In this document: one piece after another, positions 1,476 to 41,745 of the stretch | Layout of the letters: every line of letters starts with the position of its first letter | Position numbering within the stretch: position 1 is the stretch's first letter | IMG/VR virus record: IMGVR_UViG_3300035670_000303 | Location: 1 to 51,193 of that record | Strand: one strand, 5' to 3' | From: a virus | DNA: 51,193 bases | The notes under the pieces: generated by a model | Databases searched by the model: none | What the model was told of the DNA's origin: nothing | What the model saw: only the letters and a program-made list of their open reading frames with translations | Translations under genes and position numbers: made by a program

Positions 1476-1491
1476 TCTGCATCCATGCAAC
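1476..1491. promoter_or_regulatory. TCTGCA-N4-TGCAGA-type inverted repeat between divergent endolysin and terS
   Basis: Reads TCTGCA TCCA TGCAAC (10 of 12 consensus half-site bases). It ends 1 nt before the GTG of the small terminase (+) and 11 nt before the ATG of the endolysin (-), so it could serve both directions. A 17-base stretch (AACTCTGCATCCATGCA) is identical to the site before the SSB gene at 13116. Confidence 0.6.
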
Positions 1492-1492
1492 C

Positions 1493-1765
1493 GTGGCTGA
1501 CGCCAACCTGCGAGAGCTCTACGACCGCGGGCACAAGGCCGTGGTCGAGCAGCTGGTCGAAAAGATCGAGAACGGCGATGCAGACGATGGCGACCTGCGG
1601 CTGTTCGCCCAGCTGATGAAGCAGAACAACATCAGCGCCGCACCGATCGAAGGCACCGCCACCGAGGCGATGGCCAGGATGGCCGCCAAGCTCCACACCT
1701 TCGGGGCACTGGAGGAGAAGGCGAAGGTGGTGCCGATCCGCCCGGCACCGCCGGCTAGCGCTTGA
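1493..1765 (+). CDS. terminase small subunit (T7 gp18-like)
   Basis: 90 residues from GTG 1493, matching the 89-residue T7 gp18. The start at 1463 would translate through the regulatory palindrome and is less likely. The protein is helical and acidic (LRELYDRGHKAVVEQLVEKI, then DADDGDLRLFAQLMKQNNISAAP) and ends in a Pro/Ala tail. It would bind phage DNA and direct the large subunit during packaging. It lies next to the large terminase, but on the opposite strand, and their 3' ends overlap by 11 nt. T7 encodes both on one strand. Assignment rests on length, context and a loose resemblance. Confidence 0.65.
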   Translation: MADANLRELYDRGHKAVVEQLVEKIENGDADDGDLRLFAQLMKQNNISAAPIEGTATEAMARMAAKLHTFGALEEKAKVVPIRPAPPASA

Positions 1766-40400: not shown

Positions 40401-41726
40401 GCCAATGTCACCCGGCATTTGCTGGCCAACTGGAACCCCGGCGACACTGTGGCGGCTAGCAAGCTCGTCCCTGATGTCACCAACGGCAGCACTCTTACCT
40501 TGGCTGGCACAGCACTCAAGGATTTCCGCAATTTAGGGCGCCTTGACCTGCTGCTGAACAAAGGCATCACCGCCAACACCTTCCCGCTGCCAACGGTCCA
40601 GCAGACAACGACCCCTGCCACCCCGGCGGCCATGCTGCCGACGCTGGGCTTCTCAAAGCGATCGGACTGGCTCAATGTGAAGGCGCTGCCTACCAGCGTC
40701 AACGGAGGCGTCGATGCGGTCGGCGATGGGGTTGCAGATGACACCGCTGCGATCCTGGCCGCCTGCAATGCAGTTCGGGAGGCGGGCTCGCAGTGGAGCA
40801 CCGTCTACTTCCCGCCCGGCACCTACAAGATCACCAACACGATCTATCCCACCCAGGGTCTCAGCACAACTGTCTCCACCAGGGTCAACCTGCGTGGCCA
40901 CGGTGCTGGCACCGTCATCGAGTGGCATGGCAGCGCTGGCGGGACCATGTTCCGCTCCAACTCCAACGGCGTCAGCTCGTCCATCGGCATTGTCTGGAAC
41001 GGCAGGAATGTGGCTGCACGCGGATTCATCCACCACACCGAGAACGGCCGCGCCGAGTCCAAGTTCATTCATATGTACGAGGCCTTCGTCAACTGCACCG
41101 CAGAAGGCAGCGGCACGGTGCAGAACAGGGCCAGCGATGCAATGCACTTGGAGTCGTCCTCCTACCGGAATTGTGTATTCATCAATGCAGGCAATGCGCT
41201 AGTGGTATGGAGGTCTAACGACTTTATGATCCATGTTGATGGGTGTCTCTTCTACGACAACACCGTTGGCGTCTACACCCGCCAGGGCCAGGCGCTGGTT
41301 CGCAACTGTCGCTTCTTCCGGTCGAGCGAACTCGACATCAAGGAGGACGAGGTGGGCCCCAACCAGTCCATCCGCCGTTGCAGCTCTGTTGGCTCAAGGG
41401 CCTTCTACCAGCGCAACGCCGGCGAGCTGACCCGCCCCCGTGGGCGCAACGCCACGATTCAGGACGTCTACATCGCCGACTGGACGAACCCTGACGGCTG
41501 GGCCATTCGCAGCACGGCGGTCAACGCCCAGACCTACAACCCCATGCTGATCTTCGATGCAGTGTTCACGGGTGGCCCATCGAATACCGCCCCGATCCTG
41601 CTCGACCGCCCGGTGCAGGCCCTGCACTGCAATAACAGCTGGACCTATGGCGGGGTGACCAAGACAGGCGCCGACCTGTTCTCGAACTTCACGGCCAACC
41701 TTGTCGCTATCCCGGTCGTGGCCTAA
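37479..41726 (+). CDS. tail fibre/spike with T7 gp17 anchor and two beta-helix domains
   Basis: 1415 residues from GTG 37479, which yields the T7-like MAN start; TTG 37455 would read through the palindrome. Residues 1-130 are the gp17 anchor domain (NYPRTGNNRTFTVPFSFLQR). Residues ~327-364 are an Asp-Pro repeat linker, followed by a lectin-like jelly-roll region (~366-580), a poly-Pro tract (~585-593), and two pectate-lyase-type beta-helices that each open with a GD-GV-DDTAA phrase (~607 and ~1070). It should bind, and probably cut, host surface polysaccharide. Much longer than T7 gp17 (553). Confidence 0.88.
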   Translation: MANAYVNYPRTGNNRTFTVPFSFLQRSHVRLYYGYNLAKGTFTSQLTQGADWRWVNDTTIELDSPIPQGQTLTIIRRTPSVEPLVRWNNGTLSADDLNLSELQSLYLDQEQEDRQDSTSGQSTQALTAANNALTTANNALVVANEALANGGDGDGGGTAFVVVPNVAGIPASPADGDGIEIVDSTGIENFSPLAGRPTGFIGDTGLRVRLAYSQQSWQWVQYYPADPENRYAKISPAALRFTFGVVGRSLQPGQGSDVTIPAAGVKLSDFVDRVSYSKPLASAIKVTVQCLIDELLATFRNVSDVASYVPSGVLAVEVTQNTGAMPEPPPEPDPDPEPDPDPDPDPDPDPDPDPDPDPDPEPDTSIVEPFTTQQSAIDNGWTGVGNTGTGHSFGWQDSSAVSGTAGAAGGVFARASAFAYYADTNIAEVTRGNTLRLAGSFRLANNDFDGSFYLGYFNPATLVSGAPPTQFIGIEFAEPSGGASNPFRGIVKVLGTGGASSAVISLAQNTTHDVDLLWTGRADGSGTLVGTLAGQAVNLSIAAGTASFTAFGLLAGGLGVANAGEQTGTCLFDNLRYRNGSEPVTPPPPPPPPGAITLADSIVPSQVFDAKDYGAVGDGVKDDTAAVQACIDAARAAGNGALAYFPKGNYKVTKLIRARPGNYWIGGAGAYQTSIQGHGETLSPVLVITDPLNMRVEFIDVRHATNPMTMAVRQESSNGTEPSRIHYDTVLFNGWGTSSQFINSSDNATYGFTGANGMAFEAKNLNASSVLTSTHMMTQTKGASFDNCANANILLTIHGQQGWGSVRVRGQQAWRNGFFGMINGYTSLRVEDNHSVVVSDGYIEQLRPEKTSDDKRLSTPYLVLSGSADLPAGRVTVSAGRVDGAGADSGKTYANTSPYETYITTNNYKGDLLHVNSLYNIPSPNGVPSGAPNGDPNKTAYKAVCSGTQPINVLLAGNTYTQGAQAAKPVIEGGANVTRHLLANWNPGDTVAASKLVPDVTNGSTLTLAGTALKDFRNLGRLDLLLNKGITANTFPLPTVQQTTTPATPAAMLPTLGFSKRSDWLNVKALPTSVNGGVDAVGDGVADDTAAILAACNAVREAGSQWSTVYFPPGTYKITNTIYPTQGLSTTVSTRVNLRGHGAGTVIEWHGSAGGTMFRSNSNGVSSSIGIVWNGRNVAARGFIHHTENGRAESKFIHMYEAFVNCTAEGSGTVQNRASDAMHLESSSYRNCVFINAGNALVVWRSNDFMIHVDGCLFYDNTVGVYTRQGQALVRNCRFFRSSELDIKEDEVGPNQSIRRCSSVGSRAFYQRNAGELTRPRGRNATIQDVYIADWTNPDGWAIRSTAVNAQTYNPMLIFDAVFTGGPSNTAPILLDRPVQALHCNNSWTYGGVTKTGADLFSNFTANLVAIPVVA
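38461..38570 (+). repeat. (CCCGAC)n-type hexamer repeat encoding an Asp-Pro linker
   Basis: About 110 bp of near-perfect CCCGAC/CCGGAC hexamers encode a DPDPDP... stretch with a few PEP interruptions. It can expand or contract by slippage without frameshift, changing the arm length of the fibre. Confidence 0.9.
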
Positions 41727-41729
41727 AGG

Positions 41730-41745
41730 TCTCCACCACTGCAGA
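41730..41745. promoter_or_regulatory. TCTGCA-N4-TGCAGA-type element after the fibre gene
   Basis: Reads TCTCCA CCAC TGCAGA (11 of 12 bases), between the fibre stop and the start at 41783. Confidence 0.5.

What the first reader, a model, noticed from the sequence alone, without database searches (positions are those of the whole stretch)
1476..41745. A recurrent inverted repeat, TCTGCA-N4-TGCAGA, sits at the start of most transcription units
Perfect copies lie at 5294 (early operon), 10567 (before RNA polymerase) and 37459 (fibre). One-mismatch copies lie at 4834, 13116 (SSB), 17738 (virion block), 21330 (capsid) and 41730. Weaker copies lie at 1476 (terS/endolysin), 3971 and 22530 (tail tube A). 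Twelve fixed bases are expected about 0.003 times in 51 kb of random sequence. Intergenic space is a few percent of the window, yet it holds most copies. Several end 1-4 nt before the start codon, leaving no room for a Shine-Dalgarno. The element may be a new type of phage RNA polymerase promoter, a regulator operator, or an mRNA 5' stem-loop. Caution: a perfect copy also lies inside a gene at 36875-36890 and a one-mismatch copy at 12823-12838.
Basis: partly seen in the sequence, partly recalled or inferred. Interest (0 to 1): 0.85.

Follow-up and report, generated by a model that had tools for sequence, protein, structure and literature searches.

The report
Genome-wide operators of phage MarR regulator
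This cyanobacterial virus carries about a dozen copies of one two-fold symmetric DNA word at gene starts, and comparison with relatives suggests they are docking sites for the virus's own MarR-type regulator, which probably silences the genome when the virus lies dormant.

Summary
TCTGCA-N4-TGCAGA is far above chance in noncoding DNA: 8 sites with at most 1 mismatch against 0.03 expected after codon-preserving and dinucleotide shuffling. It recurs before the same genes in 22 related contigs, with variable loops, and often abuts or overlaps the start codon. The two coding copies are coincidental.
Both half-sites vary with the same spectrum. Central changes are mostly not compensated, which speaks against an RNA hairpin. 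No asymmetric flank is shared, which speaks against a T7-type promoter.
The best candidate reader is the MarR-family protein encoded just before the integrase (9064-9381). Across phages sharing the dyad its recognition helix NS[S/T]VSR[S/T]V stays nearly fixed, while the RNAP specificity-loop region falls to about 28% identity and a second winged-helix regulator's recognition helix to 20%. Cultured phage S-CBP2, with an RNAP only 25% identical, has MarR+Int and its own N4-spaced dyads (TT[G/A]CA) at gene starts. MarR-less P60, Syn5 and four others lack such dyads. Several MarR-bearing phages also lack them, so the link runs one way.
Binding and repression are inferred, not shown. A published P-SSP7 homologue does bind DNA. 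I call it a new variant of a known kind.

The parts
176..191 (.). weak dyad GCTGCAACCATGTAGC (CTGCA-N4-TGTAG), left end of contig
   Evidence: matching site with '(g)ctac' flank in several relatives
1476..1491 (+). dyad, 2 mismatches, between divergent endolysin-like M15 peptidase (853-1464 -) and terS-like gene (1493-1765 +), 1 nt before GTG
   Evidence: conserved in L003, L004, L006
3971..3986 (-). dyad, 2 mismatches, 1 nt upstream of the start codon of leftward gene 3646-3969
   Evidence: conserved in G003, G004, G006, G007, G021
4834..4849 (.). dyad, 1 mismatch, in the divergent control region between wHTH gene and early operon
   Evidence: counterparts in several relatives
5294..5309 (+). 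perfect dyad before the first early gene (ATG 5336)
   Evidence: conserved in G003, G004, G006, G007, G021
10567..10582 (+). perfect dyad between integrase/attP-like tRNA remnant and RNA polymerase gene
   Evidence: conserved 88 nt before RNAP in relatives down to 64% RNAP identity
13116..13131 (+). dyad, 1 mismatch, 4 nt before ATG of SSB
   Evidence: conserved with variable loop in most relatives
17738..17753 (+). dyad, 1 mismatch; right half contains the start codon GTG (17752) of the gene after the exonuclease
   Evidence: conserved down to 34% protein identity
21330..21345 (+). dyad, 1 mismatch, 73 nt before major capsid gene
   Evidence: conserved in most relatives down to about 60% capsid identity
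22530..22545 (+). dyad, 2 mismatches, 3 nt before ATG of tail tubular protein A
   Evidence: perfect in several relatives
37459..37474 (+). perfect dyad 4 nt before GTG of tail fibre gene
   Evidence: conserved in relatives
41730..41745 (+). dyad, 1 mismatch, after the fibre gene, before the next late genes
   Evidence: counterparts in G002, G003, G007, G021, S-SRP02
9064..9381 (+). MarR-like winged-helix regulator (105 aa), proposed reader of the dyads; recognition helix NSSVSRSV
   Evidence: Pfam MarR_2 E 2e-4, below gathering; PHROG 9665 'transcriptional regulator' 1.6e-19; model pLDDT 84.7 with MarR structures as best fold matches
9416..10402 (+). tyrosine integrase, next to the MarR-like gene
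   Evidence: Pfam Phage_integrase 1.6e-19; PHROG 1
10671..13070 (+). T7-like single-subunit RNA polymerase
   Evidence: PHROG 414 2.9e-125
3998..4393 (-). second winged-helix regulator, divergent from the early operon; rival reader
   Evidence: Pfam HTH_36 5.5e-5, below gathering; recognition helix not conserved across dyad phages
10516..10578 (+). tRNA-Met(CAT)-like remnant, probable attP; overlaps the dyad at 10567
   Evidence: Rfam RF00005 25.3 bits, below the gathering score of 29

Best explanation
The element is a 16-bp dyad-symmetric DNA operator (half-site [T]CT[G>C>A]CA, 4-bp spacer, weak A/T preference 3 bp outside each half). It is most likely read by a homodimer of the phage's own MarR-family winged-helix protein, encoded next to the integrase. 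About a dozen sites lie at the starts of genes or operons: early operon, the RNA polymerase gene, SSB, capsid, tail, fibre, terS/endolysin and a leftward gene. Bound there, the regulator would block initiation or passage of the host and phage RNA polymerases and keep the whole lytic programme silent in a lysogen, as operators plus 'stoperators' do in mycobacteriophage L5. Shown here: the sites, their symmetry, their conservation and their co-occurrence with the MarR-like gene. Inferred: binding by this MarR protein, repression rather than activation, and a role in lysogeny.
For: Enrichment: 8 noncoding sites with <=1 mismatch vs 0.03 expected. Conservation at orthologous gene starts with varying loops in 22 contigs and S-SRP02. 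46 of 124 noncoding dyads abut a start codon, 9.7 expected; leftward genes included. Unbiased search of all 5-mer dyads with spacers 0-10 returns CTGCA/N4 as the top word in the window and S-SRP02, and CTGCA or its shifted form TGCAC/N2 as top in S38C3. Both half-sites have the same spectrum at the free position 4 (left G94 C16 A3 T2; right G94 C15 A6) and no asymmetric flank consensus exists. Among phages sharing the dyad the MarR recognition helix keeps NS[ST]VSR[ST]V (L105, HGSVSRSV, is the one exception) while the whole protein falls to 44%, the RNAP loop region to 28% and the wHTH helix to 20%. S-CBP2, with MarR+Int and an RNAP 25% identical, has TTGCA/TTACA-N4 dyads at P about 1e-14 at gene starts. 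MarR-less P60, Syn5, S-CBP42, S-B28, S-CBP4 and S-RIP1 have 0-1. In S37C6, whose helix reads NASASR, CTACA forms appear, e.g. CTACATGTCTGTAG before SSB. The P-SSP7 homologue binds DNA, its recognition-helix Arg67 is essential, and it binds downstream of a transcription start (PMC9692554). MarR+Int modules are proposed lysogeny regulators in T7-like phages, with sites flanking the RNAP promoter (PMC10134795).
Against: No binding data exist for this protein. MarR-bearing phages S-TIP28, SS120-1, P-SSP7, S-CBP1, S-CBP3, S-SRP01, HTVC019P, LUZ100 and CRP-125 show no significant genome-wide dyad of this type, so MarR is not sufficient; HTVC019P and S-SRP01 even have a similar helix (QSSVSR). Recognition-helix conservation may partly reflect general constraint on the MarR fold. 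The P-SSP7 homologue acts as an activator of a host gene. Lysogeny of this phage is inferred only from the integrase and a tRNA-like remnant. Pfam matches of the MarR-like protein are below gathering. A position 1-6 nt from start codons is unusual for an operator at a promoter.
Confidence: 0.62

Rival explanations
1. Operator of another dimeric regulator, in particular the phage winged-helix protein 3998-4393 that is divergent from the early operon.
For: Classical repressor position, with dyads at 4834 and 5294 in the shared control region. The gene is found in S-SRP02 and most dyad contigs.
Against: Its recognition-helix region varies to 20-40% identity among phages with the same dyad. S38C3 and S-CBP2 have dyads and no detectable homologue.
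Confidence: 0.12
2. A new type of phage RNA polymerase promoter, giving leaderless or nearly leaderless mRNAs.
For: The sites lie before many transcription units, mostly rightward; no other strong repeated promoter-like word was found.
Against: Two-fold symmetric, variable GC-rich centre, no shared asymmetric flank; present before early genes and RNAP itself; the RNAP specificity-loop region diverges to 28-36% while the dyad stays; the Syn5 RNAP promoter is the asymmetric ATTGGGCACCCGTAA and a single one serves over 37 kb (PMC3950665); the right half overlaps the start codon at 17738 and at two S-CBP2 genes.
Confidence: 0.07
3. An mRNA stem-loop at the 5' end or between genes: translational operator, stabiliser or processing site.
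For: Position immediately before start codons without Shine-Dalgarno; 10 of 11 window copies fold as small hairpins; weak excess of paired combinations at 4/13 (86 vs 79, p 0.015).
Against: Most departures at pair 4/13 are mismatches (GG 10, CC 8, AC 3, CT 3, TC 2) against 5 compensated; outer pair T-C in SSB and T-T at 17738 conserved as mismatches in close relatives; 41730 copy unfolded; copies far from any start (4834) or 73-88 nt upstream.
Confidence: 0.1
4. Target of the same MarR protein, but used to activate or time phage genes rather than to repress them.
For: The P-SSP7 homologue raises expression from the host rne promoter and contacts the host RNAP alpha subunit (PMC9692554).
Against: Sites sit in the path of transcription or over start codons, and on genes that a phage RNAP would normally transcribe; MarR+Int context suggests lysogeny control.
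Confidence: 0.09

Closest known systems
Mycobacteriophage L5-type operators and stoperators (PMC9283540)
   Same: Many copies of one repressor site in promoters and short intergenic gaps across the phage genome; proposed to silence a prophage.
   Different: L5 sites are 13-bp, asymmetric, bound by a monomer with an HTH and a stoperator domain, and orientation matters; here the site is a 16-bp dyad, the proposed reader is a small MarR dimer, the phage is T7-like, and elongation block is untested.
MarR-Int lysogeny module of temperate T7-like phages (LUZ100, Pasto, HTVC019P; PMC10134795 and Boeckman 2022 as cited there)
   Same: MarR-like gene directly before the integrase, then RNA polymerase; sites upstream of RNAP proposed.
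   Different: There, binding sites are proposed only around the RNAP promoter; here dyads lie before many early, middle and late genes. LUZ100 and HTVC019P show no such genome-wide dyad.
P-SSP7 pMarR (PSSP7_011, gp0.7; PMC9692554)
   Same: Homologous MarR-like protein (40% identity) next to an integrase; DNA binding depends on the recognition-helix Arg.
   Different: Studied on the host rne promoter, where it activates; I saw no palindromic consensus reported there, and P-SSP7 has no enriched CTGCA-type dyad.
Syn5 RNA polymerase promoter (PMC3950665)
   Same: Cyanophage T7-like system.
   Different: Asymmetric 15-bp word, a single copy serves over 37 kb; no dyad and no relation to the sites here.

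Membership tests
MarR-family operator | Two-fold symmetric site of about 16-20 bp with short spacer | tested here: met
   TCTGCA-N4-TGCAGA, same half-site spectrum on both sides
MarR-family operator | A MarR-fold protein is encoded with it | tested here: met
   9064-9381: PHROG 9665, profile matches to MarR chains, MarR structures as top fold hits; Pfam MarR_2 below gathering
MarR-family operator | Site specificity tracks the MarR recognition helix | tested here: inconclusive
   Helix nearly fixed with fixed dyad; changed in S37C6/S31C1 with altered or no dyad; but some MarR phages with QSSVSR lack dyads
MarR-family operator | Protein binds the site | not testable with these tools
   needs EMSA, footprint or DAP-seq
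L5-type stoperators | Many repressor sites in short intergenic gaps across the genome | tested here: inconclusive
   many dyads in short intergenic gaps; that they are repressor sites is inferred
L5-type stoperators | Asymmetric site oriented with transcription | tested here: not met
   dyad-symmetric
L5-type stoperators | Halts transcription elongation | not testable with these tools
   experiment needed
T7-type phage RNAP promoter | Contiguous asymmetric conserved word of about 17-23 bp ending at the transcription start | tested here: not met
   no flank consensus, variable N4 centre
T7-type phage RNAP promoter | Promoter changes with the RNAP specificity loop | tested here: not met
   loop region 28-36% identical in G016-G018, G023 and S38C3 with the same dyad
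RNA hairpin element | Compensatory changes maintain the stem | tested here: not met
   central pair changes mostly uncompensated

The most novel reading that the evidence does not exclude
A T7-like temperate phage silences itself with a MarR-type stoperator network: one small dimer binds dyads laid over the start codons of nearly every transcription unit and stops both the host and the phage's own single-subunit RNA polymerase. This would be a repressor system built differently from lambda CI or L5.
Probability: 0.35. Interest if true: 0.78.

Novelty: new variant of a known kind. Interest (0 to 1): 0.62.

Why it matters
How T7-like phages with an integrase keep a lysogen silent is open; the published model places MarR sites only near the polymerase gene. 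A conserved, genome-wide set of predicted operators in a freshwater lineage, and a parallel set in the cultured phages S-CBP2 and S-SRP02, makes the question directly testable with one purified protein. It would also give a sequence signature of temperate potential for uncultured cyanophages.

Tried and rejected
Coding copies 36875 and 12823: explained by conserved peptides and not kept in relatives. Shine-Dalgarno-hairpin-start arrangement seen at 17738: the 'aaggagg' is not conserved in relatives. Syn5-like promoter resemblance of 'ATTGG' before two sites: not shared by the other sites. RNA hairpin and promoter readings: see rivals. A sigma-70 scan of the control region found nothing. An AT-rich 22-bp dyad at 4525-4546 is not conserved. 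One MarR profile scan could not be run for lack of conserved stretches; a scan with the S-CBP2 MarR returned only S-CBP2 itself. Boeckman 2022 is not in the library, so it is cited only through the LUZ100 paper.

Full report
Observation. The window is an IMG/VR virus record of a T7-like cyanophage: RNA polymerase, portal, capsid and integrase match the expected PHROGs, and the nearest named phage is Synechococcus phage S-SRP02. With codons permuted among synonyms in genes and noncoding DNA shuffled by dinucleotides, noncoding sites with at most one mismatch occur 0.03 times per shuffle; the real number is 8. The two coding copies (12823, 36875) follow conserved peptides and vanish when relatives use other codons or residues.

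Conservation. Loci were fetched with RNAP, capsid and SSB queries, and 22 contigs were read whole or in large part. The same dyad stands before the same genes: SSB (4 nt before ATG), the gene after the exonuclease (overlapping its GTG), tail tube A (3-6 nt), fibre (4-7 nt), capsid (73-77 nt), RNAP (88 nt in most), terS (1 nt) and the leftward gene 3646-3969 (1 nt), with freely varying loops. Of 124 noncoding dyads, 46 abut a start codon; 9.7 are expected from random noncoding positions.

DNA or RNA. From 110-115 distinct sites, the two half-sites show the same spectrum at the free position 4 (left G94 C16 A3 T2; right, read on the other strand, G94 C15 A6). Position 1 is T-rich on both sides, the bases 3 nt outside are A/T-rich on both sides, and no other flank is shared. 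Positions 2, 3, 5 and 6 were part of the selection rule and are not evidence. At the central pair 4/13 most departures are mismatches (GG 10, CC 8, AC 3, CT 3, TC 2) and 5 are compensated. Outer T-C (SSB) and T-T (17738) non-pairs are conserved as such in close relatives. The 41730 copy has no predicted fold. This is the pattern of a two-fold symmetric protein-binding site on DNA.

Who reads it. An unbiased search over all 5-mer dyads with spacers 0-10 in noncoding DNA returns CTGCA-N4-TGCAG as the top word in the window and S-SRP02. In the marine phage S38C3 the top word is the same dyad shifted by one base (TGCAC-N2), with CTGCA-N4 second. In the cultured phage S-CBP2 the top word is TTGCA-N4-TGCAA with TTACA second, P about 1e-14. 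All have a MarR-like gene next to an integrase. Counting [CT]T[GA]CA-N4-TG[CT]A[AG] in noncoding DNA, MarR-less P60, Syn5, S-CBP42, S-B28, S-CBP4 and S-RIP1 have 0-1. S-CBP2 has an RNAP only 25% identical to the window's, but about 50% identical to those of P60, Syn5 and S-CBP42. The dyads therefore follow the MarR+Int module and not the polymerase. Syn5 and S-CBP42 do carry an integrase but no MarR-like gene is annotated or was found in them, which points to MarR rather than to the integrase.

Within phages sharing the CTGCA dyad, the RNAP region corresponding to the T7 specificity loop falls to 28-36% identity and the recognition helix of the second winged-helix regulator (3998-4393) to 20-40%. 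The MarR recognition helix keeps NS[ST]VSR[ST]V while the whole MarR protein falls to 44%; L105 (HGSVSRSV) is the one exception. In S37C6 and S31C1 the helix reads NASASR; S37C6 shows CTACA forms, for example CTACATGTCTGTAG before SSB, and S31C1 no significant dyad. The specificity-loop assignment rests on alignment by eye to T7 RNAP from my own knowledge. The MarR-like protein folds as a MarR winged helix in a model of good confidence, and its best matches are MarR structures.

Published context. A homologue from P-SSP7 (40% identical) binds DNA, needs its recognition-helix Arg67, and binds downstream of a transcription start (PMC9692554). MarR+Int modules are proposed lysogeny regulators of T7-like phages, with binding sites suggested around the RNAP promoter (PMC10134795). 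Mycobacteriophage L5 repressors use many sites across the genome, but asymmetric ones bound by a monomer (PMC9283540). I found no report of genome-wide dyads in T7-like phages; the S-SRP02 paper does not mention motifs, promoters or inverted repeats.

Limits. Nine MarR-bearing phages lack a significant dyad of this kind, so presence of the protein does not imply the network, and HTVC019P and S-SRP01 have a similar helix without it. Recognition-helix conservation could partly be structural. Repression, block of elongation and lysogeny are inferences. Gene starts in the uncultured contigs come from a simple script-based caller, so distances there are approximate. Motif P-values assume independent bases and are not corrected for shared ancestry between contigs.

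Noticed in passing
window 5754-5780, 5972-6003, 6505-6535, 7213-7240: Early genes share a leader of CAC repeats ending in GACCGATGAC directly at the ATG, with no obvious Shine-Dalgarno; possibly a translation-initiation element of the early operon.
   Followed up: partly
window 4444, 4455, 9055, 13079, 13090, 21357, 42630: CCTAGG is almost confined to noncoding DNA (7 of 8 copies) and stands upstream of the wHTH gene, the MarR-like gene and SSB; it may belong to a second regulator.
   Followed up: partly
window 10516-10578: tRNA-Met(CAT)-like remnant after the integrase, probable attachment site; it overlaps the dyad before the RNA polymerase gene.
   Followed up: partly
window 4525-4546: AT-rich 22-bp near-perfect dyad AAAGTGAAT-GTCG-ATTTACTTT upstream of the wHTH gene; not found in relatives.
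   Followed up: yes
L105 (Cyanobium MAG contig JAGYNF010000097.1): A 6.2-kb contig in a Cyanobium genome bin carries the MarR, integrase and RNAP genes of this lineage (66% RNAP identity), with the dyad before RNAP and SSB.
   Followed up: partly
window 7237-8187: ArdC-like anti-restriction protein with a zincin-like metallopeptidase domain in the early region.
   Followed up: no
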